Below, piece after piece: positions 6,588 to 54,074 of a stretch of DNA of 64,000 bases. The notes under the pieces were generated by a model that had not been told where the DNA came from, made no database searches, and was given only the letters and a program-made list of their open reading frames with translations. A program made the position numbers and the translations under genes. The stretch spans positions 160,368 through 224,367 of the forward strand of contig PKUJ01000027.1 of assembly GCA_002869565.1 (NCBI GenBank), written 5' to 3'. Every line of letters starts with the position of its first letter. The stretch's first letter is position 1. Origin of the DNA: Arcobacter sp. (GTDB lineage Bacteria; Campylobacterota; Campylobacteria; Campylobacterales; Arcobacteraceae).

Positions 6588-9206
6588 TTAGTTTCCTGCT
6601 GCTAAACCTCTTTTTGGTCCACTTTTACCATGACAGAGTTTATATTTTTTACCACTTCCACAAGGACAAGGTTCATTTCTTGCAATTTTCTTTTCATTTG
6701 AAGCTAAATGTTCTTCATCTATATTTGTAATAAGGTTTTCAGTCGCTTCTTCCATTTCTGCTTTCATTTTAGCTAAAGCTTCTTGTTCTTTTTGTGCATC
6801 ATCTTTACTTTGAAGTTGAACTGTAAATAAAACTTTTATAATTTCATTTTTAATATTACCAATTAGTTCTATGAACATATTATATGATTCTTTTTTATAT
6901 TCAACTAGTGGATCTTTTTGGTTATAACCTCTAAGTCCAATACCTGTTTTAAGAGTATCCATTGAGTATAAATGCTCTCTCCATGCATTGTCTAAAATTT
7001 GTAAATATAGAACTCTTTCTATTTCACTTTTTTGTTCAGGAGCTGCAACACTCATTTTTTCTTCATAAACTTCTTTGATAATCGAAGTAAGTTTTTCTTC
7101 TAATTCTTCATAATCTTTAGAAACTATATCTTCTTCTGTAATAATTAGATTTAATTCTTCTTTAAATTTAGTAATAACAAATTCATAGTTGAAATCTTCA
7201 GAAGGCATTCCTTCTATAATTTCAGCATTCATTAATAAGTTTTGAATATATTCTAATCTGTTTTCATCAAGTTTTGACATAATGTCATATTCTGGATTTA
7301 ATAAATCGTTTCTGAATGAGTAGATTACTTTTCTTTGTTTATTAGCAACATCATCATATTCTAGTAAGTGCTTTCTACTTTCAAAATGCATTGCTTCAAC
7401 TTTTTTCTGTGCATTCTCAACGGCTCTTGTAACCATTTTTGACTCAATATGCTCACCTTCTTCAATACCAATTCTTTCCATAATACCTTTGATTTTATCA
7501 GAACCAAAGATTCTAAGAAGATTATCTTCTAATGAAAGGTAAAATTGAGATTCACCAATATCTCCTTGTCTTCCAGATCTTCCTCTAAGTTGATTATCAA
7601 TTCTTCTTGATTCGTGTCTTTCCGTTCCTATAATAGCTAAACCACCAAGAGATAATGTTTCTTCAGTTAGTTTAATATCAACTCCCCGTCCAGCCATATT
7701 TGTAGCAATTGTTACTGCACCTTTTTGTCCAGCATCTTCTACAATTTTACTCTCTTTTTCATGTTGTTTTGCATTTAAAACTGTATGAGGAACTTTTGCT
7801 TTTGTTAATAAATTATGTAAATGCTCTGATTTTTCAATTGAAGCAGTACCCACAAGAACTGGTTGTCCTTTGTCATGGTATTCTTTAATTTTTTTAGAAA
7901 CAGCATCAAATTTTTCTATTTCACTTTTATAAATTAAATCATTTTTATCAAGTCTTTGCACTTGAACATTTGTAGGAATAGAAACAACATCTAAGTTATA
8001 AATTTCAGCAAACTCTGTAGCTTCTGTTTGGGCTGTACCTGTCATACCTGCAAGTTTATCGTACATTCTAAAGTAATTTTGGAAAGTAATATCTGCTAAT
8101 GTTTGAGATTCATCTTGAATAGATACTCCCTCTTTAGCTTCTAAAGCTTGATGAAGACCTTCACTAAATCTTCTTCCTTCACTTAATCTTCCTGTAAACT
8201 CATCTACAATGATAACTTCATTGTCTTTAACAACATAGTCAACATCTTTTGCAAAAATATAATTTGCTTTTAAAGCTTGGTCCAGATGATGAGAGAACAT
8301 TGCATTTTCTAATGAGTATAAGTTATCTACTCCATAAAGTTTTTCAGCTTTTTCAATACCTTGTTCAGTAATTAATACAGATTTGTTTTTTTCGTCAACT
8401 GTAAAATCTCCAGTTGAATAAGGCTTTTCATCAGCAGATTTTGGCTCTATTAATTCACCTTTTTCAAGACTCATTGCAATTTCATTTGATTTTGCATAAT
8501 CTGCACTTTTTTGATTTGTTGGTCCTGAAATAATTAAAGGAGTTCTAGCTTCGTCAATTAAAATTGAATCCACTTCATCTACAATTACGAAGTTATGTTG
8601 TCTTTGAACTTTTTCTTCTAAATCGTAATGCATATTGTCTCTTAGATAATCAAATCCAAATTCGTTGTTTGTTCCATAAGTAATATCTGCAGAATATTGT
8701 TCTTTTCTTTCATCATCATCTCTTAAGTCACCAACAATAGCTCCAACAGAAAAACCTAAAAAGTTATATAAAGGTTCTAGCTCTTTTGCATCTCTACTTG
8801 CAAGGTAATCATTTACTGTAACAACATGAACACCTTTTCCACTCATTGCGTTTAAAATAACAGGAAGTGTAGCAACCAAAGTTTTACCTTCACCTGTTTT
8901 CATTTCTGCAATTCTACCATCATTTAGAACCATACCACCGATAAGTTGCACATCGTAGTGTCTCATGTTTAGCGTTCTTTTACTAGCTTCTCTTGTAATT
9001 GCAAATGAGTCATTTAATACTGCATCTAAATCTTTTTCTTCATTTTGAATTTGAGATTTTAGTTCATTAAAAGCATTTTGTAATTGCTCATCACTCATCG
9101 TTTCATATTGAGGTTCTAATAATGTAATAGCAGTCGCTCTTTTTTGATATCTTTTTACTTCTCTGTCGTTAGATGTTCCAAATACTTTTGAAAAAATATT
9201 AATCAT
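6588..9206 (-). CDS. secA: Preprotein translocase ATPase SecA
   Basis: SecA drives post-translational export through SecYEG. The 872-residue product has the full family layout: Walker [10 protein letters not shown] near residue 105, the [12 protein letters not shown] helicase motif near 208, the GMTGTA segment of the preprotein cross-linking region, the AGRGVDIKL and [16 protein letters not shown] motifs, and a C-terminal zinc finger [14 protein letters not shown] near residue 853. The ATG at 9206 follows AAAAAGGAACATATTTT. It leads a short operon with the Lol permease and is divergent from lolA. Confidence 0.98.
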
Positions 9207-9302
9207 AAAATATGTTCCTTTTTGCCAAATCGTTCACAATACTTCTACTTTAATTTGGTATTAGTTATAATCGCAAGATTATATAAAAATTAAGGTTAAA
9301 GA

Positions 9303-9830
9303 ATGGTTTATAAGGTTTTATTTATATTATTACTCTCTATTTCTAGTATGTTTGGTACTATTAAATTTGATGAGTTAAAAAGTTTTAGAGCAAATTTTGT
9401 TCAAACAGTTGCCAATGAGTCTGGAAAAACAATAGAATATAAAGGTAAAGTATTCATAAAAAATAATAGAAAAGTTTTATGGAAATATGAAACACCAATT
9501 ATAAAAAATGTTTATGTTTTAGAAAATATTGCAATTGTAGATGAACCTGAGTTAGAACAAGCTATTTATACTACTTTAGAAAATAGTATAGATATGATTA
9601 AACTTCTAAAAAATGCAAAAAAAATAGAAGAAAACAAATATCAAACAAAGTTATATAATATAGACTATATTATAAGTATAAAAAATGACAAGATTAATTC
9701 TTTATCTTATACTGATGAATTAGCAAACAAAATTGTAATTTCTTTTTTAGATGCAGAACAAAATATAGAGATAGAAGATGATTTATTTAACTTTTTAGCT
9801 CCAGATTTTTATGATATTATAAAGAAATAA
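9303..9830 (+). CDS. lolA: Outer-membrane lipoprotein carrier LolA
   Basis: Periplasmic chaperone that ferries lipoproteins from the Lol permease to the outer membrane. The 175-residue protein has an N-terminal signal peptide (VYKVLFILLLSISSMFG) without a lipobox, then the LolA pattern FRANFVQTVANESGKTIEYKG and VLWKYETP. Length is slightly short for the family. A TATAAT-like box at about 9266 and TAAGGTTAAAG before the ATG support the start. It is divergent from secA, whose operon holds the Lol permease. Confidence 0.9.
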   Translation: MVYKVLFILLLSISSMFGTIKFDELKSFRANFVQTVANESGKTIEYKGKVFIKNNRKVLWKYETPIIKNVYVLENIAIVDEPELEQAIYTTLENSIDMIKLLKNAKKIEENKYQTKLYNIDYIISIKNDKINSLSYTDELANKIVISFLDAEQNIEIEDDLFNFLAPDFYDIIKK

Positions 9831-37622: not shown

Positions 37623-39722
37623 ATGAATTATAGAAAAGATACAATAAATTTAACAACAGGTACGGTAGAAGAAAAACGTCAAGAAATAAGAGAATATTTT
37701 TTACAGACATATGAACTTGACGAGAGACTTTTTGATTTATTAAAAGAAAAAAAGTTTATATATGAACAACCAAATAGTTTAAGACATCCTTTGATTTTTT
37801 ATTTTGGACATACAGCTACATTTTTCATGAATAAACTAGCCGTATCAAATATAGTAAAACAAAGAATAAATAAGACCTATGAGTCTACCTTTGCAATAGG
37901 TGTAGATGAAATGTCTTGGGATGATTTAAATGATGAGAATTATGTATGGCCTACATATGAAGAGACAAAAGCATATAGAGATGATGTAAAAGGTATTGTA
38001 CTTGATTTAATAGACAATATGGAGTTTACACTTCCAATTAATTGGGAATCTCCTATGTGGATTATACTTATGGGGATAGAGCATGAAAATATTCATATAG
38101 AGACATCTTCAGTACTACTAAGAGAGCTTGATATTAAGTTCTTATCTGATGAAGAGATATTTATTTATAACAATGAAGGTAAAGAAACATATCCACAAAA
38201 TGAACTTTGTACTGTAAAGGGTGGAGAAGTTCTAATAGAAAAAGATAGAAAAAATCCAATCTTTTATGGCTGGGATAATGAGTTTTCATTTCATAAAGCT
38301 CAAATAAAAGAGTTTAAAGCTAGTAAATACTTAGTATCAAATGGAGAGTACTTAGAGTTCGTAAAAGATGGTGGTTATTCTAAGCTCCACTATTTTACAA
38401 AAGATGGGGTGAAATGGTTAGACTTTACACAAGCTAAGATGCCAACTTTTTGGTTAAAAGAAGATGGCAAGTATTTTTTAAGAGAGATAAATCGTATAGT
38501 ACCACTTCCTTTAAATTATCCAGTTGATATAAACGTATATGAAGCAGAGGCATTTTGTAAATACAAAAGTGAAAAACTTGGTGTTGAGGTTAGACTTCCT
38601 AGTGAAGATGAATACTATAGATTAAATGACTATACAAAAGCACAAGAACAAGAATCAAACATAGGACTTAAATACTTTAATCAAACGCCTGTAGATAAAT
38701 ATAAGTTTGGTGAGTTTTATGATGTAGTTGGAAATGTATGGCAATGGAGTATAACACCAACATATCCTTTTGATGGTTTTGAAACACATCCTTCATATGA
38801 TGACTTTACAACTCCAACTTTTGATGATAGACATGCTCTTATGAAAGGTGGTTCTTTTATATCTTTAGGAAATGAAATACTAAGAGAAGCTAGATATGCT
38901 TTTAGAAAACACTTTTTCCAACATGCAGGTTTTAGATATGTACAATCAGACAATGAATATAGAACTAAACTAAATGACAATGTATATGAAACAGATGAAC
39001 AGATCTCTCAGTATTGTGCTTTTCATTATGGTGAAGAGAATTTTGGAGTTAAAAACTTCCCTAAAAACTCAGTAGATGTTTTAAGACCATATTTAAAAGA
39101 TATAAAAAAGAATAGAGCAATGGACTTAGGTTGTTCAGTAGGGCGAAGTACATTTGAACTTGCTACTTTATTTGATGAGGTATTAGGAATAGATTTTTCA
39201 GCAAACTTTATCAATGTAGGGATAAAACTTATCAAGTATGAAAACCTAACTTACAAAGTTGCTACTGAGGGTGATTTATTTGATGAAAAAACTATATCTT
39301 TAAATGATCTAGAATTAGAGCATACAAAAGAAAAAGTTACATTTATGCAAGGTTATGCTTGTAACCTAAAAGATATCTATACTGGATATGATTTAATTTT
39401 TTGTTCAAATTTAATTGATAGATTATATTATCCTCAAAAATTCTTAGATGATGTTCCAAATAGAGTAAATGATGGCGGAATGTTAGTGATTCTTAGCCCA
39501 TATACTTGGCTAGAAGATTATACTCCAAAGACAAACTGGCTTGGTGGATATCTAAAAGATAACAAAGAAGTTAAAACTTTAGATACCTTAAAACTAAACC
39601 TAGAAGAAAAAGGTGACTTTGAATTAGTTGATACAATTGATGTACCTTTTGTAATCAAAGAGACAAATAGAAAACATCAGTACACAATCTCACAAATGAG
39701 TATTTGGAAGAAAAAAGTTTAA
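37623..39722 (+). CDS. ovoA: 5-histidylcysteine sulfoxide synthase / methyltransferase OvoA
   Basis: Non-haem iron enzyme that joins cysteine to C5 of histidine with O2 and then methylates the product, making the ovothiol core. In 699 residues I see an N-terminal DinB-like domain with the iron ligands HENIHIE (about 154-160), an FGE-sulfatase domain (KGGEVLIEKD, VEVRLPSEDEYYRL, VVGNVWQWS, LMKGGSFISLGNE, about 210-450), and a C-terminal SAM methyltransferase (AMDLGCSVGRSTFEL near 500). This three-domain order is specific for OvoA. The PLP lyase OvoB is not in the window. Last gene of the operon; ovothiol protects against oxidants. Confidence 0.93.
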   Translation: MNYRKDTINLTTGTVEEKRQEIREYFLQTYELDERLFDLLKEKKFIYEQPNSLRHPLIFYFGHTATFFMNKLAVSNIVKQRINKTYESTFAIGVDEMSWDDLNDENYVWPTYEETKAYRDDVKGIVLDLIDNMEFTLPINWESPMWIILMGIEHENIHIETSSVLLRELDIKFLSDEEIFIYNNEGKETYPQNELCTVKGGEVLIEKDRKNPIFYGWDNEFSFHKAQIKEFKASKYLVSNGEYLEFVKDGGYSKLHYFTKDGVKWLDFTQAKMPTFWLKEDGKYFLREINRIVPLPLNYPVDINVYEAEAFCKYKSEKLGVEVRLPSEDEYYRLNDYTKAQEQESNIGLKYFNQTPVDKYKFGEFYDVVGNVWQWSITPTYPFDGFETHPSYDDFTTPTFDDRHALMKGGSFISLGNEILREARYAFRKHFFQHAGFRYVQSDNEYRTKLNDNVYETDEQISQYCAFHYGEENFGVKNFPKNSVDVLRPYLKDIKKNRAMDLGCSVGRSTFELATLFDEVLGIDFSANFINVGIKLIKYENLTYKVATEGDLFDEKTISLNDLELEHTKEKVTFMQGYACNLKDIYTGYDLIFCSNLIDRLYYPQKFLDDVPNRVNDGGMLVILSPYTWLEDYTPKTNWLGGYLKDNKEVKTLDTLKLNLEEKGDFELVDTIDVPFVIKETNRKHQYTISQMSIWKKKV

Positions 39723-41502: not shown

Positions 41503-42624
41503 TTGAAAATATTACATTACAGCGATACCCATCTAGGCTATAACGATTTAGATATTTTAAATGATGATAATATAAATCAAAGAGAAGCAGACTTTTACGA
41601 TGCTTTTTCTCAAGTTGTAGACCAAATAGAAAAAATAAAACCAGATTATATAATTCACACAGGGGATTTGTTTCATAGATCAAGTCCAAGTAATAGAGCT
41701 ATTACTTTTGCATTAAAAGAATTCAAAAGAATAAATGCTTTAAATATACCTTGCATAATGATTGCAGGAAATCACTCAACCCCAAGAAGTATTTTAAGTT
41801 CTCCTATTCTAAAAATATTTGAAGATTATGAAAATATATATGTCTCATACGAACAATCTTACAAAAAAATAGAATTTGAAGATGTGGTATTTCACACACT
41901 GCCACATATGAATGATGATACAAAAGCAGAAGAACAAATCGACAAATGTGAAGAAAATATAGATAAAAATAAAAAAAATATTATGATGATGCATTGTTCT
42001 GTTGGAGCTTGGTATTTGATGCAAGAGTTTGGAGAGTGGGTGTATCCTACAGATAAAGAACATCTGTTTGAAAAGATGGATTACGTTGCACTTGGTCATT
42101 GGCATGGCTTTGGAAATGTAGGTAAATATCAAAATGTTTATTACAGTGGAAGTCTTGAGCGAACAAGTCTAAATGACAAAAGAAATAACAAAGGCTTTGT
42201 TATTGTAGATATAGAAGATGAGTTGGAAGTAAACTTTCAGAATATTGATATAAGAGAGATTATTTCAAAAGAGATTGATTGTGAAGATTATGAAGCTTCA
42301 ATCGAAGCTTTAGATATCTCTGATACAAAAGATGCTTTAGTAGAAGTAAAACTAAAAAATCTAACAACTATGCAATCAATTGATATTCAAAACTCAAATA
42401 TCAAAGCACTATTTCCTGAAGCTATGAATGTAGCAGTAAAAAGAGAGTTTAGCAAAGAGACTTATATTCAATCTTCTATTGATGATGTACAAGCTCTCTC
42501 TTTAGAAAACTTTTTCCTAGAACATGTAAAAGAACAAAGTATAGACAATGAATATGATAGATTAAAACCAAAAATTCAAGAGCTATTTTCTAAATATGAA
42601 GAGGCTCAAGATGACTCTATGTAA
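41503..42624 (+). CDS. sbcD: DNA exonuclease SbcD (Mre11-type)
   Basis: Nuclease subunit of the SbcCD complex that opens hairpins and trims DNA ends. The 373-residue protein has the metallophosphoesterase motifs YSDTHLGYND, HTGDLFHRSSPSNRA, AGNHSTPRS, MMHCSVG and ALGHWHGFG. The start is TTG 41503 behind AAGGATAG. It overlaps sbcC by 14 bp. Confidence 0.92.
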   Translation: MKILHYSDTHLGYNDLDILNDDNINQREADFYDAFSQVVDQIEKIKPDYIIHTGDLFHRSSPSNRAITFALKEFKRINALNIPCIMIAGNHSTPRSILSSPILKIFEDYENIYVSYEQSYKKIEFEDVVFHTLPHMNDDTKAEEQIDKCEENIDKNKKNIMMMHCSVGAWYLMQEFGEWVYPTDKEHLFEKMDYVALGHWHGFGNVGKYQNVYYSGSLERTSLNDKRNNKGFVIVDIEDELEVNFQNIDIREIISKEIDCEDYEASIEALDISDTKDALVEVKLKNLTTMQSIDIQNSNIKALFPEAMNVAVKREFSKETYIQSSIDDVQALSLENFFLEHVKEQSIDNEYDRLKPKIQELFSKYEEAQDDSM

Positions 42625-44980
42625 ACTAAAACTTGAAAACTTTAAAAAATATGTCTCTTTTGAGATGGAGTTTGGCGAAGGCTTAATTGGAATCATAGGT
42701 AAAAATGGAAGTGGAAAATCCACTATCTTTGAAGCAATACTATTTGCTCTATATGGCGAGTTTAAAGACAGAGGCTATAAAGATATAGTAAGAAATGCCA
42801 ATGCCACTACAAAAGATCCTGTAGTAGTAGAATTAACTTTTGAATTTGAAGGCATAGAGTATTTAGCAATAAGAGAGTTTAGAGGAAAAGCCCTAAGTGC
42901 AAATGCAAAACTATTTAAAAATGGCGAATTGCTTACAAGTGGAGCAAAAGAAGTAAGCACAAGTATAATAAAACTTACAAAGATGAATAAAGAAGCCTTT
43001 TTACATACACTATTTGCTTCACAAAAAGAGCTTACAAGTCTAAGTAATTCAAAACCAGAAGATAGAAAAAGAATGATAAGAAAGCTTCTAGGACTTGAAA
43101 AAATAGACTTCATAGAAAAAGAATTAGTAGAAAAGAGCAGAGAACTAAAACGAGAAATAGCAGCTTTTGCAGAAGTACTTTTAAGTGCTGAAGATATAGA
43201 AAGCAAAAAAGAACAAATCAAAATAAACGATGATACAAAAAAGAGTTTATCCAAAGATATAACTGCTCAAAGCAAAGAAATAGATATTCTAAAACTAAAA
43301 GAGATAGACATCAAAAAAGAGCTAGAAAGTTTTGCTAAAATAAAAGAGCAAAAGCAAAAAGCCTTGAATGAATTGAATCTTTTAAAAAACAATATAGATT
43401 CATCGATACAAAATCAAATAAAACTATCTCTTGAACTAAAAGATTTAGAAGAAAAGCAAAAAGAATACAAGCTCTTAGAACCTATAAAAAAAGAGTATGA
43501 AACTTTACAATCAGATTTAAAAGAGCAAACAAAGCTAAAAGAGTACAGCTTAAGAAAAGAGGGCTTACAAAAAGAGCAAGAAAGTTTACGAGAACAATAC
43601 AAAAAATCAAAAAAAGATATAGAAGTATTGCAAAAAGAGTGTGAAGGATTTGAAGAGCTAAAAGCCAAAGAAGAGTTATATCTACAAATGCTAAATCAAA
43701 TAAAAATAGAACTCAAAGAGATACAAAACAGAGAAAAAGAATTAAACTCAAGTATCTCAGCAGAATTAAGAGTTATTAGTGATACTACATCAAAAATTCA
43801 TCAAATACAAAATTTAGGGAAAGAGTCCAACTGTCCTACATGTACAAGACCTCTTTTAGAAGAGTATGACAATGTAATGGACTCTTTAAATAGTACCATC
43901 ATACAAATCCAAGAAGAAAAACTATCAAGACTAAAACAAGAGTTAATAGATATAGAAAGCAATATCAAAATAGTAGATAGTAAAAAAATAGAGCTAGATA
44001 AAAACCTAGTACAACTAATCTCTAAAATAAATCTAATAACTAGTAAACAAAAAGACTTAAATGCTTTAGAAAATCATTTTAAAACAATAGAACAAAAAGG
44101 AAAATCAAACAACGAAGAAATAGCCAAACTAGAAATGTATAACTATGATGAAATAAAACACAAAGAGTTAGAAAACAGTTTCAATGAACTAGTTCCAAAA
44201 TATGAAAAAATGAAATCCCTAGAAACTATGATAAAAAGATTTGCTAGTGTAAAAGAAGACCTAGAAACGATAAACAAAAAAATCATAGAACTAAATGCAA
44301 ACTATGACTCAAAAGAGATAGACTACAAACAAATAGCCTACGATGAAGCAGCCCATAAAACAAGAGAAAAAGAGTTTGATGAACTACATAAAACAGTAGA
44401 AGAAAAAGTATCACAACTAAATGAAATAAAAGTAAAAATAGCAAAAATCGAAGGTGAAATAAAAACAATACAAAGCTCACTAGATAACAACGATAAACAA
44501 CTAAAAAAAGTACAAACAAAAAAAGATGACCTAATAGATTACGACAAAATAAAAGTAAGTCTAAGTGAATTCAAAACAAAAATAAACTCAAAAGTAGCCC
44601 CAAGAATATCAGACATAGCCTCAAATATGTATGCCCAAATCACAAAAGGCAAATACCAACACATAGAAGTATCAAACGACTTTGACTTTTATATCTATGA
44701 TGAAGGTAAAAGATACCCAATAGAAAGATTCTCAGGTGGAGAAATAGACTTAGCAAACCTAGTCCTACGAATTGCCATATCAAAAACACTAACAGAACTA
44801 AGTGGAAGCTCTCAAATAGGTTTCCTAGCCTTTGATGAAGTATTTGGAAGCCAAGATGAGGCAAGAAGAATGGAGATACTAGAAGCCTTTCATATGATAA
44901 AAGAGCAGTATCGACAGATATTTTTAATCTCTCATGAGTTGGAGATAAAGGAGATGTTTGAACATGTTGTAGAGTTATAA
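42611..44980 (+). CDS. sbcC: DNA exonuclease SbcC (Rad50-type ATPase)
   Basis: A 789-residue SMC-type ATPase, partner of SbcD. Walker A IGKNGSGKSTIFEAIL is near residue 33. Long coiled coils (about 180-640) are bent at the zinc hook CPTCTRP near residue 412, and the signature FSGGEIDLANLVLRIA and Walker B GFLAFDEVFGSQDE follow. It is short for the family (over 1000 in E. coli) but complete in motifs. I start at ATG 42611 behind GAAGAGG. Confidence 0.93.
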   Translation: MTLCKLKLENFKKYVSFEMEFGEGLIGIIGKNGSGKSTIFEAILFALYGEFKDRGYKDIVRNANATTKDPVVVELTFEFEGIEYLAIREFRGKALSANAKLFKNGELLTSGAKEVSTSIIKLTKMNKEAFLHTLFASQKELTSLSNSKPEDRKRMIRKLLGLEKIDFIEKELVEKSRELKREIAAFAEVLLSAEDIESKKEQIKINDDTKKSLSKDITAQSKEIDILKLKEIDIKKELESFAKIKEQKQKALNELNLLKNNIDSSIQNQIKLSLELKDLEEKQKEYKLLEPIKKEYETLQSDLKEQTKLKEYSLRKEGLQKEQESLREQYKKSKKDIEVLQKECEGFEELKAKEELYLQMLNQIKIELKEIQNREKELNSSISAELRVISDTTSKIHQIQNLGKESNCPTCTRPLLEEYDNVMDSLNSTIIQIQEEKLSRLKQELIDIESNIKIVDSKKIELDKNLVQLISKINLITSKQKDLNALENHFKTIEQKGKSNNEEIAKLEMYNYDEIKHKELENSFNELVPKYEKMKSLETMIKRFASVKEDLETINKKIIELNANYDSKEIDYKQIAYDEAAHKTREKEFDELHKTVEEKVSQLNEIKVKIAKIEGEIKTIQSSLDNNDKQLKKVQTKKDDLIDYDKIKVSLSEFKTKINSKVAPRISDIASNMYAQITKGKYQHIEVSNDFDFYIYDEGKRYPIERFSGGEIDLANLVLRIAISKTLTELSGSSQIGFLAFDEVFGSQDEARRMEILEAFHMIKEQYRQIFLISHELEIKEMFEHVVEL

Positions 44981-45098: not shown

Positions 45099-45164
45099 TG
45101 GGTGTGATTTTCCATGTGGAAGCACAATGAAAAAGGGATTTGACTTAAAATAAAAAGGATTAAT

Positions 45165-47840
45165 GTGATAAATGGTACAAAATGGTATAAAATAGATTTT
45201 CATATGCATACTAATGCTTCATCAGACTACAGAGATCAAAACTACTCACATAGAAACTGGCTTTTAAAATGTATGGAAAAGGAATTAGATTGTGTTGTAA
45301 TATCTGATCATAATAGTGGTAGTAATATTGATCAAATAAAAAATGAATATTTACTGTTAGAACAAGAGAACCCCGTAAGTTTTAGAAAACTTGTAATTTT
45401 CCCAGCAGTAGAGCTTACTGTAAATACAGGTATTCACTTATTAGTTATATTTCCAGAATATGCAACATCTCAACAAATATCAACTTTTTTAGGTTCGGTA
45501 AGAATTGATGGTAATGTAGGTGATATAGAAGCAATTACACATTTATCATTGAATGATGTACTCGATATTGCAAATAAAGATTATAAAACACTAACTATAC
45601 CAGCTCATGTTGATGAAGTAAAAGGTTTATTTACAGTTTTACAAGGACAAACATTAAAAAAAATATGTTTAAAAGAAAATATATTTGCAATTGAACAAAT
45701 TAATAAAGCATTTATTCAACCTAAGGTTTATGTAGATTTAAATTTGAAACATCATAGAGTTGTAGGTTCTGACTCTCACTGTCTAAATGATATTGGAAGA
45801 AGATTTACATTTGTAAAAATGGGTATAGCTAATTTTAATGGTTTGAAAGTTGCATTAAGTGATAAATTGAATAATAATATTATTTGTAGTGATGAAATCA
45901 CAAGTAGTAATCCAAATGAAATAAATTGGGAGTACATAAGTGATTTAGAAATTAGTAGTGCATTTAAAATAGGGAGAAGTAACCCTTTATCTTTAAAGTT
46001 CTCACCATGGCTAAATACTATAATAGGAGGTAGAGGAAGTGGAAAGTCTTCTATTCTTAAAATGCTTCAATATGCATATGGTCTTCATGAAAAACTTCCT
46101 AGTTCTCATCCAGATAAATTAGATTTTTTTAAAAAAGGTTCTAGAACAACAGCTGGAATGTTACACAATGACATTGAAATTTCTTTTACTTACAATAAAA
46201 TGGGAATTGAAACAAAGTTTAAAAAAACATATGATGATTATAAAAGATTAGAAAATGGGCAATATAATTTATTAGAAAAAGAAGCAATTCAAGAGTTTTA
46301 TCCTGTAACAATAATTACTCAAAAAGAGTTATTTGAAAAAGCTTCAAATCCAGAAGACATATTCTCTTTAATTGATTCAAAGATTAACTATTTTAATTGG
46401 GAAATAGAATTTAACCAATTAATAAAAGAATATGAAGAAAGTAAATCTATTGAAAGAAATATATTACAAGATATATCTGATAAAAGTAAATTAATAGAAC
46501 AATTGAAACATATTGAATTAGAATTAAAAACTTATGATAAATATGATTATTCACAATTATTGAAAGATAATACTAGAATACAAAATGAAAGCTCAAAATT
46601 AAAAAAAATATATGATGAAATTGAAACATATAAAAATTCATTAAAAAGTATAACTTTTTCTATTGATTTTGATGATTTAGATTTTTTAAATGAAGATTCG
46701 CCAGATATTACAAGTGTAAAAAATAATTTATTTGCAGTAAGTGAAATTATATCTAACCAAGTAACAATTTTAGAAGAACAATCAAAAGAATGGGTAAAAA
46801 TCTGGAAAGAATCTGAATGGAATAATAAAAAAATAGATATCAAATCTAAATATGAAGAGTTATCAAATGAATTAAAAGAACAAGGTACGGATATCACAGG
46901 TTACCAAATTGCATTAAACACGAAAGAATCAATAAAAGAAAGAATTGAAGAATATATTAAAAAAGAGCAAATTTTAGTAAAACAACAAGAAAAAAGTTTG
47001 AGACTTTTAAATAATATTTCAGAAAAAAGAAAGCAACTATTCCAAAATAGGAATGACTATATTGAAAGAATTAATCAACAATTATCAACAATTTTTCCAG
47101 ATAACAGAGTAGTTTTTGAAATTAAATACCTTGGTGATGTAATTGAAAGTGAAGAAAGTTTTAGAAAAATAATACAAAGACAAGATAATACTTTTGAATC
47201 TTATATTTTGCAATATGATCCAATATCAAATGAAAACTCAGGAATTTTATGGGAACTAAATAATAGTGAAGATATTGAAAATGATTTAATAACGTTAAAA
47301 CAAAATATTTTATCAGCAAATAGTGATAATACATTTAATTTTGGAGCTAGACTTACAAATCATTTTAATTCAATACTTGAAAAGAAATCTGCAGAAGATA
47401 ATATATTGACGTGGTTCCCAAAAGATAAACTATCTATAAAAATTATATCTAATGGGAGAGAGCTTGATATTAATATTGCTTCTGCGGGACAAAAAGCTGC
47501 TGCCTTAATGACTTATGTTTTATTAGAAACAAAAGGTCCACTAATTATAGACCAACCAGAAGATGATTTAGATAGTAGAATGATAACTAGTTTAATAGTT
47601 GATGCATTAAGAAAATTAAAAGAAAAAAGACAAGTTATTGTTGTAACACATAATCCTAATATTCCAGTAAATGCTGCTTCCGAAAAAATATTTGAAATGA
47701 ATTTTATAAATGGACAAATTCATTTAAAAGAAGAGGGAACAATTCAAGAAAGAAATATTAGAGAATCTATTTGCCAAGTAATGGAAGGTGGGGAAGATGC
47801 ACTAGAACATAGATTTAATAAAATAATTAAATTTAAATAA
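45165..47840 (+). CDS. TrlF-like protein: PHP phosphoesterase plus SMC-type ATPase
   Basis: An 891-residue protein. The N-terminal PHP domain has metal ligands in DFHMHTNASSD (H13, H15), ISDHNSG (D48, H49), HVDE and VVGSDSHCLNDIG (about 202-206). An ABC/SMC-like ATPase follows: Walker A GGRGSGKSSIL (288-296), a coiled-coil middle (about 420-640), signature ASAGQKAAALM and Walker B LIIDQPEDDLDSRM near 795. This is the layout of the TrlF family of AAA-like ATPases, which often lies in defence islands. The start is GTG behind AAAAAGGAT. It opens the accessory island. Confidence 0.82.
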   Translation: MINGTKWYKIDFHMHTNASSDYRDQNYSHRNWLLKCMEKELDCVVISDHNSGSNIDQIKNEYLLLEQENPVSFRKLVIFPAVELTVNTGIHLLVIFPEYATSQQISTFLGSVRIDGNVGDIEAITHLSLNDVLDIANKDYKTLTIPAHVDEVKGLFTVLQGQTLKKICLKENIFAIEQINKAFIQPKVYVDLNLKHHRVVGSDSHCLNDIGRRFTFVKMGIANFNGLKVALSDKLNNNIICSDEITSSNPNEINWEYISDLEISSAFKIGRSNPLSLKFSPWLNTIIGGRGSGKSSILKMLQYAYGLHEKLPSSHPDKLDFFKKGSRTTAGMLHNDIEISFTYNKMGIETKFKKTYDDYKRLENGQYNLLEKEAIQEFYPVTIITQKELFEKASNPEDIFSLIDSKINYFNWEIEFNQLIKEYEESKSIERNILQDISDKSKLIEQLKHIELELKTYDKYDYSQLLKDNTRIQNESSKLKKIYDEIETYKNSLKSITFSIDFDDLDFLNEDSPDITSVKNNLFAVSEIISNQVTILEEQSKEWVKIWKESEWNNKKIDIKSKYEELSNELKEQGTDITGYQIALNTKESIKERIEEYIKKEQILVKQQEKSLRLLNNISEKRKQLFQNRNDYIERINQQLSTIFPDNRVVFEIKYLGDVIESEESFRKIIQRQDNTFESYILQYDPISNENSGILWELNNSEDIENDLITLKQNILSANSDNTFNFGARLTNHFNSILEKKSAEDNILTWFPKDKLSIKIISNGRELDINIASAGQKAAALMTYVLLETKGPLIIDQPEDDLDSRMITSLIVDALRKLKEKRQVIVVTHNPNIPVNAASEKIFEMNFINGQIHLKEEGTIQERNIRESICQVMEGGEDALEHRFNKIIKFK

Positions 47841-47842
47841 AT

Positions 47843-47919
47843 ATGAACCTTTCTAAATCCCTCTACACAAAAGGTATACAATGTCCCAAAGCACTTTGGC
47901 TTAAAAAATACAAGCCAAG
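47843..47919 (+). repeat. Partial copy of the 5' end of the DUF2779 gene (left repeat)
   Basis: These 77 bp match 52593-52669, the first 77 bases of the DUF2779 gene, with about seven mismatches. The copy is still open as a 36-codon frame (MNLSKSLYTKGIQCPKALWL start) that ends at 47953. All differences but one amino acid (Gly for Ala) are synonymous, so the copy diverged as coding sequence before it was cut off. It starts 2 bp after the trlF stop and lies just before the kinase-helicase gene. Confidence 0.9.
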
Positions 47920-47946
47920 AATAGAAAATAATATAAGGATAAAAAT

Positions 47947-50900
47947 TTGTTAAAAAGTTACGAATTAATTGAAAAAATAAAAAATAATGTATTATTAGTA
48001 AAAAATCTTAAGGATGAAAAGTTAATAGTAAAAGTATATCCAAAAAATAGTAATGAATATTCTACAATTTATCTTCATGAGATAAAAGCTTTAGAAAAGC
48101 TAGTACATAAAAATGTAGTGAAAATTGAAAGTTCAGAGGAAGATGAAGCTTATTATTATTTATTATTTAAGTATATTCAAGGTGAAACTATTTCTTCTGC
48201 ATTTAGGAATTTAAATAATGATAGAAAAAAATATAGTTTTTTAAAAACTATAAATAAAATATTGGATGCATTAAATTATATTCATTTGAATAATTACACT
48301 CATAATGATTTAAAGCCAAATAATATTATAGTAAATTACAACAAAGAACCTTTTTTATTAGATTTTGGGACAGCAACTATTTCAAATACTATCACTAAAT
48401 CAGTAAGTGAATTATCATTATGGTATGCGAGTCCTGAACAGAAGAATAATCTAGATGTAGATTTACGTTCAGATTTTTATTCTTTGGGTGTTACAATAAT
48501 TGAAACTTTAGTAGAAGAACAATTATTTGATAAATTCATTGAAAAGAAAATATCTCTAGATGAGTTAATAAATAGTATAGATTTTTTTGCAGATGGTAAA
48601 AATGAAGAATTAATAAATATTCTAAAACAAATGACTTATGAAGATAGAAGCTATAGGTTTGACAATGCTAAAGAAATTATCACTCGTATAAACAATATTT
48701 TGAGTTTCTTTAATTTTGAAAATGAATATGAGTTAAACCTTAGTGAAACAGTAAAAAGTCAATTAATTGAAGACTATAATAAATCTCCTTGGGATATATT
48801 AGAATTTATAAATGAGAAACTTAATAATGAAATCAAATATGTAGAATATGGTAAAGATCAAGAAGACAGGGATCAAGTAAAAATTTGTACTAATGATTTA
48901 GTATTTTATTGTGGCATTAAAAGTAATGATCACTTTTATGTTTTTAGATATTCTCAAAGAGTACCAGATTCGATTAAACAAAATGGACATATATTAGAAG
49001 ATAAATTTATATTATCAGAAGGACGTCCTTTATCTAAATATAATTCAACTGATGAATTAATTGATAAGCTAATTAGATTAGATAAAAAAGAAACAAGAGA
49101 AAAAGAAGAAAGAAAAGAAAAAAAAGATTTTTTAACAAAAACAGAACAACAGTTAAAAATTGAAAGAGCAATTCTAGATAAAAAGAATATTTCATTATAT
49201 GCATATACAAAAAACATAAAGAAGGCAAAAAAAGAGTTTACAGCAAAAGTCATTAATCAATCAAATATTAAGATTAAAAAGGAGCATTTAAAAAGTACAA
49301 TAGAAGAAAAATTTGTACATAAACTATTTGATGATGGTTTTATTGATGATCCTAATAACCAAGATTTACTGGAGTTATTAAATAGTTTGATTGAAAACTT
49401 CTTTTTTGAAAATAATAAAAATGATATAGCAAAAAAACTTTCAATCATTCAAAAAAAAGAACAAAAAGTTGTAAAGAATATATTAATATCAAGATATGAA
49501 GAAATTAAAAGAAATATGAAAAAACTTGAATTTAATGCAAGTTTATTATTCTTTATGTATCCAGAGTATTTAATTAAGCAAAAAGAAGAGGATGATTTTT
49601 TTGAACAAAATGATGATGTAATAGTTGAGGGAGTAAATAAAAAAAATAAGTTTAATTCACAATGTTATGTACAAAACACAAATGTTATAAAAAAAGAAAT
49701 AAATTTAAAACATGATAAAGAAATATCAAAAATACCAGATGAAATAAAAATATCTTTTGATTATGCTCGTAGTAGTGGAGTATTAAATAAGCAAGAATAT
49801 TCAATAAAGGATTTAAAAAGCAATAATACGATTATTGATAACTTACTGGGTAAGATTTCTAATCCAAACTCTCTTGCACCCAAAAGAGAAATTCCTAAAA
49901 TAGATAGAGAGTTTCTAATTAATAAAAGATTAGATGAAAATCAAAAAGAAGCAGTTGAAAAGGCTCTTAGTTTAGAAATGGGTGAATACCTTGTTATTCA
50001 AGGACCTCCAGGAACAGGTAAAACTACAGTAATAACAGAAATAATTCAACAAATTTTGAAAAGAAATAAGTTAGCTAAAATTTTGGTTACTTCACAATCT
50101 AATCAAGCAGTAGATAATGTATTGGAAAAAATATGTAAAGATGAAAATAAAATTGTTAGATTTGGTAATGATAAAAGTAAATTTTCTGATACAGCACTAA
50201 AATATCATGAAGAATCAGTTTTTTATAGTTATTTACAAGAAATTAAAAAAAGGTTGGAAAGTGATAATACAAATTACTTTTTAAAAGGAGAAAAATTAGA
50301 CTCTCTTCATAAAAGATGGAAAAGTACTATACTTCAAGGTGATGATGAGTTAAAAACACTTTTATTTAAAAAAATAAGAGTAATTTTTGGAACTTTAGTT
50401 GGAATAAGTAGTTGGCAAGATTTTAGAAGTATAGAGTTTGATTATATTATTGTTGATGAAGCAGGTAGAGCAACTTTGCCTGAGTTGATGATACCACTTA
50501 GAAAAGCAAAAAAATTTATTTTAGTAGGAGATCATAATCAATTGCCACCAATTGTTGATGATACTGTTCTATCAAAAATGACTGATTACAATAAAAAAGA
50601 TTTAGAAACAACACTTTTTGAAGAACTATATGAGAAAATAGAGCATAATGATTTTAAACATTTTTTAAAATATAATTATCGTTCACATTCAAGTATTGCT
50701 AAACTGTACAGTGAAGTTTTTTATGATGGAAATATTGAAACTGAAGATGGTTTAGTTAGAGAACATCAGCTAGGCTTTGAAAAGAAAGTTTACTTATACA
50801 GTACATCAAATATTGAAGATAGATTTGATAAACAAAGAGGTACGGGAAAAATTAATGATGCAAATAAAAAAGTTATCATAAAAACCTTAGAAGAACTTCA

Positions 50901-51309
50901 ATTAAATGCAACTAAATATGATAAATATAAATCTGTAGGAATTATTACACCTTATTTGGTTCAACGGGATAATTTACGAACTTCTATTGGACAATTAAAA
51001 TCAAAATTTGATAAATTAGACATTGCTATTAACTCAGTAGATGCATTTCAAGGAAGTGATAGGGATATAATTATTTATGATATAGTACGAAGTCAATCTG
51101 ACTCAAGAGTAAATATAGAGTTTATTGCTGATGAGAAGAGGTTAAATGTTGCCCTTTCAAGAACAAAAGAGTTATTGTTTTTAGTTGGAGATGCAAATTT
51201 TATTTATAGTTGTAATTTAAAAGAAGGTGATAATCCATTTAAAAAAATTATTGAATTGATTAATCAAAATAAAGATTACTATGAAATTAAAGAGGTGACG
51301 GATGAATAA
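47947..51309 (+). CDS. Ser/Thr protein kinase fused to SF1 DNA/RNA helicase
   Basis: A 1120-residue fusion. Residues 1-255 are a eukaryotic-like kinase: beta-3 Lys29 (LIVKVYP), alpha-C Glu45, catalytic loop HNDLKPNN (Asp120, Asn125), DFGTA (Asp138) and SPEQ with RSDFYSLG. The glycine-rich loop is absent (KIKNNVLLVKN). The middle (about 260-650) is Lys/Glu-rich with helices. The C-terminal SF1B/Upf1-like helicase has Q-motif LDENQKEAVEKAL, Walker A GPPGTGKTTV (686-693), VDEAGRATLPE (836), GDHNQLPP, NYRSHSSIAKLY, DAFQGSDRDIIIYD and NVALSRTKELLFLVGD. The start is TTG behind AAGGAT. It overlaps the PLD gene by 8 bp. Confidence 0.85.
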   Translation: MLKSYELIEKIKNNVLLVKNLKDEKLIVKVYPKNSNEYSTIYLHEIKALEKLVHKNVVKIESSEEDEAYYYLLFKYIQGETISSAFRNLNNDRKKYSFLKTINKILDALNYIHLNNYTHNDLKPNNIIVNYNKEPFLLDFGTATISNTITKSVSELSLWYASPEQKNNLDVDLRSDFYSLGVTIIETLVEEQLFDKFIEKKISLDELINSIDFFADGKNEELINILKQMTYEDRSYRFDNAKEIITRINNILSFFNFENEYELNLSETVKSQLIEDYNKSPWDILEFINEKLNNEIKYVEYGKDQEDRDQVKICTNDLVFYCGIKSNDHFYVFRYSQRVPDSIKQNGHILEDKFILSEGRPLSKYNSTDELIDKLIRLDKKETREKEERKEKKDFLTKTEQQLKIERAILDKKNISLYAYTKNIKKAKKEFTAKVINQSNIKIKKEHLKSTIEEKFVHKLFDDGFIDDPNNQDLLELLNSLIENFFFENNKNDIAKKLSIIQKKEQKVVKNILISRYEEIKRNMKKLEFNASLLFFMYPEYLIKQKEEDDFFEQNDDVIVEGVNKKNKFNSQCYVQNTNVIKKEINLKHDKEISKIPDEIKISFDYARSSGVLNKQEYSIKDLKSNNTIIDNLLGKISNPNSLAPKREIPKIDREFLINKRLDENQKEAVEKALSLEMGEYLVIQGPPGTGKTTVITEIIQQILKRNKLAKILVTSQSNQAVDNVLEKICKDENKIVRFGNDKSKFSDTALKYHEESVFYSYLQEIKKRLESDNTNYFLKGEKLDSLHKRWKSTILQGDDELKTLLFKKIRVIFGTLVGISSWQDFRSIEFDYIIVDEAGRATLPELMIPLRKAKKFILVGDHNQLPPIVDDTVLSKMTDYNKKDLETTLFEELYEKIEHNDFKHFLKYNYRSHSSIAKLYSEVFYDGNIETEDGLVREHQLGFEKKVYLYSTSNIEDRFDKQRGTGKINDANKKVIIKTLEELQLNATKYDKYKSVGIITPYLVQRDNLRTSIGQLKSKFDKLDIAINSVDAFQGSDRDIIIYDIVRSQSDSRVNIEFIADEKRLNVALSRTKELLFLVGDANFIYSCNLKEGDNPFKKIIELINQNKDYYEIKEVTDE

Positions 51310-52606
51310 TATACAAAATACTATAGAGTATAAGGAAATACTTGCAAGAAAATATTATGAGTATTATCTTGATGAAAAATATGAACTGTATGATATTCAA
51401 GAGTTTTATTATCCTTATTTTAAAATCACGTGTAATTGTATTTTTAGAGAAAAAACAAAATTATCAATAATAGAAGAGATTTTTTTAAGTGCTATAAAAG
51501 AGGGTATAAATGATTTAAATGAACTTGAGAGTTTTTTAGCTCTAGACAAAGAAGTCTTTGAAGAATTAGCTGCACGCTTGCATATCGATAAACTATTTGT
51601 AGAAACACCTATTTTAACTTTAACAGATGCAGGTATTAAAGTACTAAATGATAGTGGAATACTTACAACTCAAGAAGATGACAAATATGTACTTTTAGAT
51701 GCTATTTTAGGTACTCCTATTTCTATAGATATGACAGACGAACGAAAAAAAGATAAATCTAAAAATAAAAATAATTTAAGAGTACAAATCCCATATCCTA
51801 AAACTGAAACATTGGATAAAAATGTTAATAATAAAGCATTGCAGACAGTATTATTTGAAAGTATAAAAAGTACAAATAATAAAGAGAAAGAGATATATGA
51901 AATAAAAGAAATATTAGATACATATAAATTTCATAAAAAATATTATGCACTTTTTTTTAAGAATGAAAATAATCCTAAAAAAGTATTGATTTTAAATAAT
52001 GGTGAACCTAATGATGAACTAACTAATATAGTTAGTGATTTTGAACAAAAAGGAAAGAATTTATTTGATTTATCAAAACTTGCTAAGGAAGAACATAACG
52101 AACTATTAAACGATAAAACTATAAAAGAGTATTCTGAAATAGATAACTTAGATAATGGTACTCAATTAAGTACATATGAACATCCTAAGTTCTTTGATTA
52201 TGCATTTAAGTATTCAAAAAAAGAAGTTGTAATAGTTTCTCCTTGGATTAGGTGGGAAGTTATAAAAGAAAAAAAAGTATTTATAGAAAATGCTTTAAGA
52301 AGAAATGTAAAAATTACTTTTAATTATGGTATGGGTAAAAGAGAAGATTTAGATTTAAAATCAAAAAATTTTTTTGATGAAATGAGAAGTAAATATAATA
52401 ATTTACTGGTTTATACTACACGTAATGAAAAAGATCATTCCAAAATATTAATTTGTGATAGAGATTGGATGATCACAACAAGTTTTAACTGGACATCATT
52501 TAAAGGAGATATAAATCGAGAAGAAAGGAAAGAAAAAGGTACATTTTTAAATGATAGAAGTGAAATTTTAAAAAATATTGAAGAATATTCAAATGAACCT
52601 ATCTAA
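51302..52606 (+). CDS. Phospholipase D-superfamily nuclease-like protein
   Basis: A 434-residue protein. The C-terminal domain (about 285-430) has the HKD signature HSKILICDRDWMITTSFNWTS (H about 378) preceded by KKEVVIVSPWIRWEVI, as in PLD-type nucleases that act as dimers with one motif per chain. Residues 1-120 (KLSIIEEIFLSAIKEG, ELESFLALDKEVFEELAARL) look like a winged-helix-type region. Translation is coupled to the kinase-helicase gene, so the two should form one functional unit. Its stop lies 14 bp inside the next gene. Confidence 0.82.
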   Translation: MNNIQNTIEYKEILARKYYEYYLDEKYELYDIQEFYYPYFKITCNCIFREKTKLSIIEEIFLSAIKEGINDLNELESFLALDKEVFEELAARLHIDKLFVETPILTLTDAGIKVLNDSGILTTQEDDKYVLLDAILGTPISIDMTDERKKDKSKNKNNLRVQIPYPKTETLDKNVNNKALQTVLFESIKSTNNKEKEIYEIKEILDTYKFHKKYYALFFKNENNPKKVLILNNGEPNDELTNIVSDFEQKGKNLFDLSKLAKEEHNELLNDKTIKEYSEIDNLDNGTQLSTYEHPKFFDYAFKYSKKEVVIVSPWIRWEVIKEKKVFIENALRRNVKITFNYGMGKREDLDLKSKNFFDEMRSKYNNLLVYTTRNEKDHSKILICDRDWMITTSFNWTSFKGDINREERKEKGTFLNDRSEILKNIEEYSNEPI

Positions 52607-52669
52607 ATCCCTCTATACAAAAGCCATCCAATGCCCCAAAGCACTTTGGCTTAAAAAATACAAGCCAAG
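52593..52669 (+). repeat. Right copy of the 77-bp direct repeat
   Basis: This is the 5' end of the intact DUF2779 gene. With 47843-47919 it brackets the kinase-helicase and PLD genes (about 4.67 kb between copies). See the left copy for comparison. Confidence 0.9.
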
Positions 52670-54074
52670 TGTTTTAACACTACCAGATGAACAAGCCCAA
52701 GCTATATTTGAAACTGGAAATATAGTAGGAGATTTAGCTTGCGAGCTTTTCCCTAGAGGTAGGGAAGTACCATATACTAAAAACTATGATGATATGATAG
52801 CTACTACAAAAGAATGGATGGAAGAGGGTGTATCAAATATCTACGAAGCTACTTTTAGCTATGAGGGCATACTTATCATGGTAGATATTTTAAAAGTAGA
52901 TAGCGATGGTGTATCTATCTATGAGGTTAAAAGTTCTACCGAGGTAAAAGATATTTATCTTCATGATGTATCTATTCAGTATTATGTTTTAGAAAACTTA
53001 GGTTTTAGTATAAAAAGTGCAAGTGTAGTACATATAAACAATGAGTATGTAAGAGGTGAATCTTTAGAGTTAGACAAGCTTTTTAAGATAGTTGATGTTA
53101 CAAGTGAAGTGCAAAGTTTACAAGCAAATATCCCAAGTATATTAAAAGAGTTTGAAACTTATCTTGAAGATAAAGTAAATGAGCCAGATATAGATATAGG
53201 AAAACATTGTAACAAACCTTATGAGTGTGATGCTAAAAACTATTGTTGGAAAGTACAAAGAAAGATACCTGAGTACTCTATCTTTAATATTTTCAATCTA
53301 GGAAGTAAAAAACAAGTAGAGTTATACAATCAAGGTATCATAGATATAGAAAATATCCCAGAAGATTTTGATATGACGGCAAATCAAAAACAAGCAGTAG
53401 AAAACTACAAATCAAAAGCAAGCTATATAGACAAAGAAAATATCAAAGCCTTTTTAGAAAACTTCACATACCCAATTTATCACTTAGACTTTGAAACCTA
53501 CCAACAAGCCATACCACAATACAAAGGAATAAAACCCTTTGAGCAAATCCCTTTTCAATACTCACTTCATATTGAGCATGAAGATGGGACTTTGGAGCAT
53601 AAAGAGTATTTGAGCAAGGATAGTGTAGATAGTAGATATGAACTAGCACAAAAACTATGTGAAGATATCCCAAGTGATGTTACAGTATTAGCTTATAATA
53701 TGAGTTTTGAAAAAGGTGTGATAAAAAGACTTGCAAACCTTTTTTCTGACCTAAGTATTCACTTATTAGCTATAAATGAAAATATGCAAGACCTGATGAT
53801 ACCTTTCCAAAAGAAATGGTATGTAACACCAAGTATGAAAGGAAGCTACTCTATCAAGTATGTATTGCCTTCCCTTGTACCAGAGTTTGAAAAAGCATAT
53901 AAAGAGTTAGAAGGTGTACAAAACGGAAGCCAAGCTATGAATGCTTTTGCAAATATGAGTAAACTAGAAGAGAGTGAGAAATTGAAACTTAGAACTGCAC
54001 TTTTAGAGTATTGTAAACTTGATACTTTGGCAATGGTGAAAGTGTTGGAGAGATTAAAAAATATCAAAAAATAA
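52593..54074 (+). CDS. DUF2779 protein: Cas4-like nuclease plus DEDD exonuclease-like domain
   Basis: A 493-residue protein. The N-terminal part has a Cys (IQCPKALWL) that together with CNKPYECDAKNYC (about 205-217) forms a four-Cys cluster like Cas4/AddB iron-sulfur nucleases. In between is a PD-(D/E)XK core (ILIMVDILKVDSDGVSIYEVKSS). The C-terminal DUF2779 region has IYHLDFETYQQAIP, AYNMSFEKGVIKRLA and LEYCKLDTLAMVK, which resemble DEDD exonuclease motifs. Start ATG 52593 lies inside the PLD gene. The first 77 bases are duplicated at 47843. Confidence 0.85.
   Translation: MNLSKSLYTKAIQCPKALWLKKYKPSVLTLPDEQAQAIFETGNIVGDLACELFPRGREVPYTKNYDDMIATTKEWMEEGVSNIYEATFSYEGILIMVDILKVDSDGVSIYEVKSSTEVKDIYLHDVSIQYYVLENLGFSIKSASVVHINNEYVRGESLELDKLFKIVDVTSEVQSLQANIPSILKEFETYLEDKVNEPDIDIGKHCNKPYECDAKNYCWKVQRKIPEYSIFNIFNLGSKKQVELYNQGIIDIENIPEDFDMTANQKQAVENYKSKASYIDKENIKAFLENFTYPIYHLDFETYQQAIPQYKGIKPFEQIPFQYSLHIEHEDGTLEHKEYLSKDSVDSRYELAQKLCEDIPSDVTVLAYNMSFEKGVIKRLANLFSDLSIHLLAINENMQDLMIPFQKKWYVTPSMKGSYSIKYVLPSLVPEFEKAYKELEGVQNGSQAMNAFANMSKLEESEKLKLRTALLEYCKLDTLAMVKVLERLKNIKK

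What the first reader, a model, noticed from the sequence alone, without database searches (positions are those of the whole stretch)
47843..52669. Kinase-helicase/PLD gene pair bracketed by a diverged 77-bp direct repeat of the DUF2779 gene start
Seen directly: the first 77 bases of the DUF2779 gene (52593-52669) recur at 47843-47919 with about seven mismatches, and exactly two genes (kinase-SF1 helicase and PLD nuclease, coupled by an 8-bp overlap) lie between. Nearly all mismatches are synonymous, so the left copy diverged under selection as part of a working gene and was then truncated. Inference: a two-gene cassette that normally sits before a DUF2779 gene was recombined in together with part of its home copy, leaving trlF and DUF2779 as the original neighbours. 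This looks like a transferable defence module with its own homologous docking site.
Basis: partly seen in the sequence, partly recalled or inferred. Interest (0 to 1): 0.8.

Follow-up and report, generated by a model that had tools for sequence, protein, structure and literature searches.

The report
Swappable phage-defence slot with gene-end scars
In Arcobacter-family bacteria, two neighbouring gene sets (sbcDC and a predicted nuclease gene, DUF2779) frame a slot whose phage-defence genes differ from species to species, and the repeated 77 bases are a leftover end of the framing gene at which the Mokosh defence cassette was swapped between species.

Summary
The 77-bp repeat is real: 71/77 identical, running from the ATG to codon 26 of the DUF2779 gene. 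The two genes between the copies are a type I Mokosh system (MkoA, MkoB). In Arcobacteraceae, sbcDC and DUF2779 frame a slot holding different defence systems in different genomes (Gabija, Lamassu, Tiamat, OLD, SIR2-HerA and others), on chromosomes and plasmids. Truncated DUF2779 5' ends recur in 14 of these genomes. Such scars always include a gene end, are co-oriented, and nearly always keep the end that faces the slot. The same fragment plus Mokosh, with the same truncation point, occurs in three species of two genera behind unrelated upstream cargo. Between two of them the 4.7-kb block is 99.2% identical (dS about 0.03), while the left fragment and the full DUF2779 differ at dS about 0.4 and 0.33. 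The exchange borders therefore lie inside the two repeat copies. A fixed-core site-specific crossover does not fit and no integrase lies nearby, so homologous recombination between framing-gene ends is favoured.

The parts
41503..42624 (+). sbcD (short type), left framing gene
   Evidence: Metallophos PF00149; NCBIfam sbcd over its cut-off
42596..44980 (+). sbcC/Rad50-like (794-aa short type), left framing gene of slot 1
   Evidence: weak SbcC_Walker_B and Rad50 matches; full-length relatives in G001, G006, G013
45101..45125 (+). 25-nt scar of the 3' end of the other (1051-aa long type) sbcC, between resident sbcC and trlF
   Evidence: 24/25 identical to the long sbcC 3' ends of many relatives, E=3e-7; homology starts at the same base as in the scars of G001, G048 and G085a
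45165..47840 (+). trlF/Ppl-like defence gene, older slot-1 cargo
   Evidence: NCBIfam TrlF_fam_ATP 489 bits, cut-off 350; PADLOC Ppl 1.9e-112
47843..47919 (+). left repeat: truncated 5' end of a DUF2779 gene (codons 1-26), a slot-1 scar (ORF reads on to 47953)
47912..52612 (+). block exchanged between species: 99.2% identical to G015, bounded inside the two repeat copies
   Evidence: 36 differences in 4701 nt, against 8/69 to the left and dS 0.33 in DUF2779 to the right
47947..51309 (+). mkoA: Ser/Thr kinase plus SF1 helicase (Mokosh type I)
   Evidence: PADLOC MkoA 1.1e-187 over nearly the full profile; HNDLKPNN, DFG, GPPGTGKT and DEA motifs
51302..52606 (+). mkoB: PLD-family nuclease (Mokosh type I)
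   Evidence: PADLOC MkoB 1.2e-53; PLDc_2 at Pfam cut-off; HSKILICD HKD motif
52593..52669 (+). right repeat: first 77 nt of the intact DUF2779 gene
52593..54074 (+). DUF2779 gene (493 aa), right framing gene of slot 1 and left framing gene of slot 2
   Evidence: PF11074 1.2e-46; relatives in 55 of 104 family genomes

Best explanation
The region is a defence hotspot made of operon-like slots between framing genes: sbcD-sbcC, slot 1, DUF2779, slot 2 (shown). Slot 1 in the window holds a TrlF/Ppl-like gene and then a type I Mokosh pair. The 77-bp left repeat is a truncated DUF2779 5' end that marks where one cassette was stacked behind another (shown by comparison; the order of events is inferred). 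The fragment-Mokosh-DUF2779 start forms a cassette with direct repeats at its borders. DNA with this arrangement recombined with a single-copy DUF2779 start in another species through the repeats, inserting Mokosh upstream of an intact DUF2779 gene and leaving the upstream cargo untouched (mosaic borders shown; RecA-type recombination of DNA taken up by transformation or brought by a plasmid is inferred). Recombination between the two copies would excise the cassette exactly (predicted). The scars probably arise when a second DUF2779 copy comes in with new cargo and the redundant copy loses its body, as in G047, where 5' and 3' ends remain with slot-2 type cargo behind them. Once in place, the cargo is probably expressed with its neighbours and acts as ordinary anti-phage defence (inferred from family).
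For: (1) Identical truncation junction plus Mokosh in G000, G015 and G027, with unrelated upstream genes; homology begins exactly at the fragment's ATG. (2) G000/G015: dS 0.43 in the left fragment, 0.034 in mkoA, 0.025 in mkoB, 0.33 in DUF2779; left fragment against block Fisher p=1.5e-7. (3) A second unit, a 40-codon fragment plus an 896-aa helicase/nuclease gene, sits behind three different upstream cargos in G077, G081 and G084 with a shared junction. (4) No scar is wholly internal: all include a gene terminus, all are co-oriented, and with one exception at sbcC (G036a) the slot-facing end is kept. (5) In Aliarcobacter plasmids, homology of 91-97% stops within 4 nt of the sbcC stop and resumes 0-4 nt from the DUF2779 ATG, with unrelated cargo between. 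(6) Unoccupied comparison: in L116 a DUF6602 gene 82% identical to G027's overlaps the start of a full DUF2779 exactly as G027's overlaps the fragment. (7) Cargo is largely known defence systems; 106 of 114 slot-1 ORFs lie on the framing strand. (8) No Phage_integrase gene at the locus in 10 scar-bearing genomes. (9) Natural transformation is shown in Aliarcobacter butzleri (PMC8308473).
Against: No strain pair of one species with and without Mokosh was available, so insertion and excision were not seen directly. The direction of transfer is unknown: an exchange of upstream cargo at the fragment gives the same mosaic. Only the Mokosh pair has borders resolved to the base; the other fragments could be passive remnants. 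The left mosaic test rests on 8 differences in 69 nt, and the left fragment is a pseudogene in G015. Synonymous divergence at the DUF2779 5' end is only modestly low (rank 18 of 473 windows), so nothing marks the end as a specialised site.
Confidence: 0.75

Rival explanations
1. The fragments are passive debris. DUF2779 was duplicated in tandem with cargo, the redundant copy decayed by internal deletion, and later transfers used long flanking homology (sbcDC, whole DUF2779), so the 77 bp plays no part in transfer.
For: G047 and G013 keep both the 5' and the 3' end of a deleted copy; sequence behind several fragments matches DNA behind full DUF2779 genes elsewhere. In G011 and G090 the long fragment's best match is the same genome's full copy. 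Long flanking homology exists in the plasmids.
Against: In G000/G015 both borders of the nearly identical block fall inside the 77-bp copies, and the upstream DNA is not homologous, so the left crossover can only have used the fragment. The same fragment-cargo unit sits behind unrelated cargo in two families of cassettes.
Confidence: 0.22
2. A site-specific recombinase acting in trans uses the DUF2779 start as attachment site, making attL and attR copies.
For: Insertion that preserves the target gene and leaves repeats at both ends is the usual look of integrated elements. Every genome tested has tyrosine recombinases elsewhere.
Against: With a fixed core, left copies would differ only before it and right copies only after it. 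In G000/G015 the last left difference is at repeat position 69 and the first right one at 21, which no single core position allows barring later mutation. Fragment length varies from 12 to about 130 codons. sbcC 3' and DUF2779 3' ends also form scars. No integrase lies at the locus.
Confidence: 0.07
3. The left copy is a conserved regulatory element or leader peptide for the Mokosh operon.
For: It lies just upstream of mkoA, and its ORF overlaps the mkoA start by 7 nt in the window.
Against: The ORF has an internal stop in G015 and an earlier stop in G027. No Rfam match at E up to 0.1. Fragments of the same gene start precede unrelated cargo elsewhere. Differences are mostly synonymous, as in a former coding gene.
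Confidence: 0.03

Closest known systems
Core defence hotspots of Pseudomonas aeruginosa (cDHS1/cDHS2; PMC10250203)
   Same: Defence systems of many kinds between conserved flanking genes, with no single mobile element. The authors propose added target sites and homologous recombination as routes.
   Different: Here slots are short, operon-like and bounded to within a few bases of framing-gene ends, and visible gene-end scars mark the joins. That paper supposes recombination would leave no mobile-element scars and leaves open how such hotspots are built.
Minimal mobile elements of Neisseria (papers holding the term found; definition from own knowledge)
   Same: Alternative cassettes between two conserved genes, exchanged through flanking homology in naturally transformable bacteria, without mobility genes.
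   Different: Cassettes here are stacked, with truncated copies of the framing gene between them that served as internal recombination borders; cargo is anti-phage defence.
Mokosh type I defence system (MkoA, MkoB; PADLOC models)
   Same: Kinase plus SF1 helicase MkoA and PLD-family MkoB, adjacent and co-oriented.
   Different: No difference in gene content seen; only the genomic setting is unusual. Anti-phage activity not tested.
Homology-facilitated illegitimate recombination (own knowledge)
   Same: One end anchored by homology, the other joined within the anchor gene, giving terminal fragments of variable length.
   Different: Explains how a scar may first form, but not the reuse of one identical junction in three species.

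Membership tests
Mokosh type I | MkoA with kinase and SF1 helicase domains | tested here: met
   MkoA model 1.1e-187 over 21-1104 of 1112; Pkinase, AAA_11 and AAA_12 over cut-offs; catalytic motifs present
Mokosh type I | Adjacent MkoB with PLD nuclease domain | tested here: met
   MkoB model 1.2e-53; PLDc_2 at cut-off; one HKD motif
Mokosh type I | Protects against phage | not testable with these tools
   needs a plaque assay
Core defence hotspot | Conserved framing genes with different defence systems between them in relatives | tested here: met
   sbcC upstream of DUF2779 with cargo between in 33 of 52 regions; many PADLOC families
Core defence hotspot | Occupied in nearly all strains of one species | not tested
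   one genome per species in the collection; only a few plasmids of one species seen
Minimal mobile element | Unrelated cassettes with homology ending at the flanking genes | tested here: met
   plasmid comparisons, homology limits within a few nt of the gene ends
Minimal mobile element | No integrase or transposase of its own | tested here: inconclusive
   no Phage_integrase at the locus in 10 genomes; transposases not searched systematically
Minimal mobile element | Exchange by transformation and homologous recombination | tested here: inconclusive
   mosaic borders inside the repeats; uptake route not tested
Integrase-driven genomic island | Fixed crossover core | tested here: not met
   left differences reach position 69, right ones start at 21

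The most novel reading that the evidence does not exclude
Slot-facing ends of framing genes (last ~100 nt of sbcC, first ~80-120 nt of DUF2779, last ~50-100 nt of DUF2779) act as portable recombination borders. Defence cassettes are stacked, exchanged across genera and excised exactly by ordinary homologous recombination, with no recombinase of their own: in effect an integron-like array that uses truncated gene ends as sites.
Probability: 0.4. Interest if true: 0.8.

Novelty: new variant of a known kind. Interest (0 to 1): 0.66.

Why it matters
How defence hotspots without an evident mobile element are built is stated as an open question (PMC10250203). This locus keeps visible scars of the joins, so order of arrival, donor and crossover points can be read from sequence and tested in a transformable laboratory strain. 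It also gives a simple search rule: genes between the sbcC 3' end and the DUF2779 start in Arcobacteraceae are candidates for new defence systems; several such genes had no or only weak matches here.

Tried and rejected
Chance repeat: rejected. Leader or RNA element: no Rfam match, ORF not conserved. A specially conserved DNA site at the DUF2779 start: synonymous divergence only modestly low, rank 18 of 473. Fixed-core integrase: contradicted. trlF directly before DUF2779 in a relative: not found, because trlF has no relative at E<1e-60 in the other 103 family genomes. The DUF2779 start in viral contigs: none; in phage records only 3' parts of distant relatives in Helicobacter heilmannii phage records. 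Literature searches found no description of this hotspot in the held library; one paper lists the sbcDC and DUF2779 genes of plasmid pM830MA in a table, and I saw no comment on them in the passage read.

Full report
OBSERVATION. The 77-bp direct repeat is present as described, with six mismatches, 71/77 identical. It starts exactly at the ATG of the DUF2779 gene and runs to codon 26. Two genes lie between the copies, overlapping by 8 bp. They are MkoA and MkoB of a type I Mokosh system (PADLOC 1.1e-187 and 1.2e-53; motifs). Upstream lies a TrlF/Ppl-like gene, and before it sbcD-sbcC. Of five changed codons between the copies four are synonymous, and the fifth is a change in the full copy relative to its relatives. 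The left copy therefore looks like a recently working gene start.

SETTING. I compared 16 genomes of the genus and 104 of the family. 55 of the 104 encode DUF2779 or a piece of it. In 33 of 52 fetched regions that hold DUF2779, sbcC lies 2.6-11.4 kb upstream on the same strand with cargo between. The cargo differs from genome to genome and often matches known defence families: Gabija (G077, G081; G048 by homology to G077), Lamassu (G010, G001), a Hachiman-like helicase (G005), Tiamat (G013), OLD (G015), SIR2-HerA domains (G027), dGTPase (G002) and others. 106 of 114 slot-1 ORFs of 100 aa or more lie on the framing strand. A second slot follows DUF2779. The same arrangement sits on large Aliarcobacter plasmids.

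SLOT BORDERS. Between plasmids pM830MA and pCNAC48 (both A. cryaerophilus) 94% identity runs to 4 nt past the sbcC stop, ceases, resumes 3 nt after the DUF2779 ATG, ceases near the DUF2779 end and resumes further on; other plasmid pairs show the same. Cassettes are thus bounded almost exactly by framing-gene ends.

SCARS. A systematic search found leftover pieces of framing genes. DUF2779 5' ends lie in slot 1 of G000, G001, G011 (two), G015, G027, G047, G048 (two, on either side of one gene), G077, G079, G081, G084, G090 and G102, that is 14 genomes counting G013, which keeps a 5' piece joined to a 3' piece. DUF2779 3' ends lie at the far side of slot 2 in G005, G009, G027 and pM830MA. The 3' ends of the long sbcC type lie at the left border of slot 1, also in genomes whose resident sbcC is the short type (G001, G048, G085a, G061) and in regions where no sbcC gene was called upstream of the slot (G034, G051, G079, G082, G091, G099a, G102). 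One region (G036a) keeps an sbcC 5' end. All are co-oriented, and no wholly internal fragment appeared. The window itself has a 25-nt long-type sbcC scar at 45101-45125, starting at the same base as in G001, G048 and G085a, so trlF too is slot cargo.

THE MOKOSH UNIT. The fragment with the same truncation point followed by Mokosh occurs in G015 (same genus) and G027 (Aliarcobacter faecis plasmid pAFAEC), behind unrelated genes (OLD and DUF6602 instead of trlF), with homology starting at the fragment's ATG for G027 and just before it for G015. Between G000 and G015 window positions 47912-52612 differ at 36 of 4701 sites. The 69 nt before differ at 8 (p=1.5e-7), and DUF2779 after it has dS 0.33 (mkoA 0.034, mkoB 0.025, left fragment 0.43). 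Both borders of the exchanged block therefore lie in the two DUF2779 starts. The last left difference is at repeat position 69 and the first right one at 21, which a single fixed crossover core cannot give. No Phage_integrase gene lies at the locus in ten scar-bearing genomes. An unoccupied comparison exists for the pAFAEC cargo: in L116 a DUF6602 gene 82% identical overlaps a full DUF2779 start by the same bases as pAFAEC's gene overlaps the fragment.

ORIGIN OF THE FRAGMENTS. Behind several fragments the DNA continues as it does behind full DUF2779 genes elsewhere: G047 like G078, G001 and the second G011 fragment like G006, G090 and the first G011 fragment like G014, and G077/G081/G084 like G031. 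G047 keeps both ends of a deleted copy. These fragments are former complete DUF2779 copies that lost their bodies (inference). Shortening the upstream copy would also make loss of the cassette by repeat recombination rarer (inference, untested).

MECHANISM. Best reading: ordinary homologous recombination of incoming DNA between framing-gene ends. Aliarcobacter butzleri is naturally transformable (PMC8308473) and the cassette also sits on a plasmid, so routes of entry exist. The identical run between the window copies is 35 nt, short but plausible for such recombination (own knowledge). Shown: slots, scars, mosaic borders. Inferred: RecA dependence, uptake route, direction of transfer, expression as one unit, anti-phage activity of this copy.

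COMPARISON WITH THE KNOWN. The gene pair meets the tested features of Mokosh type I. The locus works like a core defence hotspot (PMC10250203) and like a minimal mobile element, but with stacked cassettes separated by framing-gene ends. That paper suggests extra target sites and homologous recombination as possible routes and calls the building of such hotspots open; the scars here give a case in which it can be read.

LIMITS. One genome per species is held, so gain or loss within a species was not observed except as slot differences among a few plasmids. ORF calls were mechanical. Only one cassette pair has base-resolved borders.

Noticed in passing
window 50616-50913: 19 of the 36 differences between the window's Mokosh block and that of G015 fall in about 300 nt of the mkoA helicase part, hinting at a further small exchanged patch.
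   Followed up: no
window 41503-44980 and relatives: Two sbcC types (about 794 aa and 1051-1209 aa; only weak partial matches between them) occupy the same place in different genomes; the short type sits directly before a 3' scar of the long type in G001, G048 and G085a.
   Followed up: partly
L126:14645-22594: In A. cryaerophilus plasmid pCNAC48 macrolide-resistance genes (ere(B), msr(D), mef(A)) and transposases lie on the slot-2 side of DUF2779.
   Followed up: no
L125:14001-15476: The DUF2779 gene right of Mokosh in pAFAEC is broken into two reading frames.
   Followed up: no
L066:6857-9547 (-): An 896-aa SF1 helicase with a C-terminal DUF2726 / REase-like domain forms a second fragment-plus-cargo unit in G077, G081 and G084; candidate defence gene with only partial PADLOC matches.
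   Followed up: partly
L074, positions 7264-9558 counted in the reversed orientation (G048): A 694-aa gene with no Pfam match sits between a 44-codon and a 12-codon DUF2779 5' fragment, a cassette bounded by two scars.
   Followed up: partly
window 37623-39722: 699-aa ORF that by eye looks like an OvoA-type sulfoxide synthase fused to a methyltransferase; family not tested.
   Followed up: no
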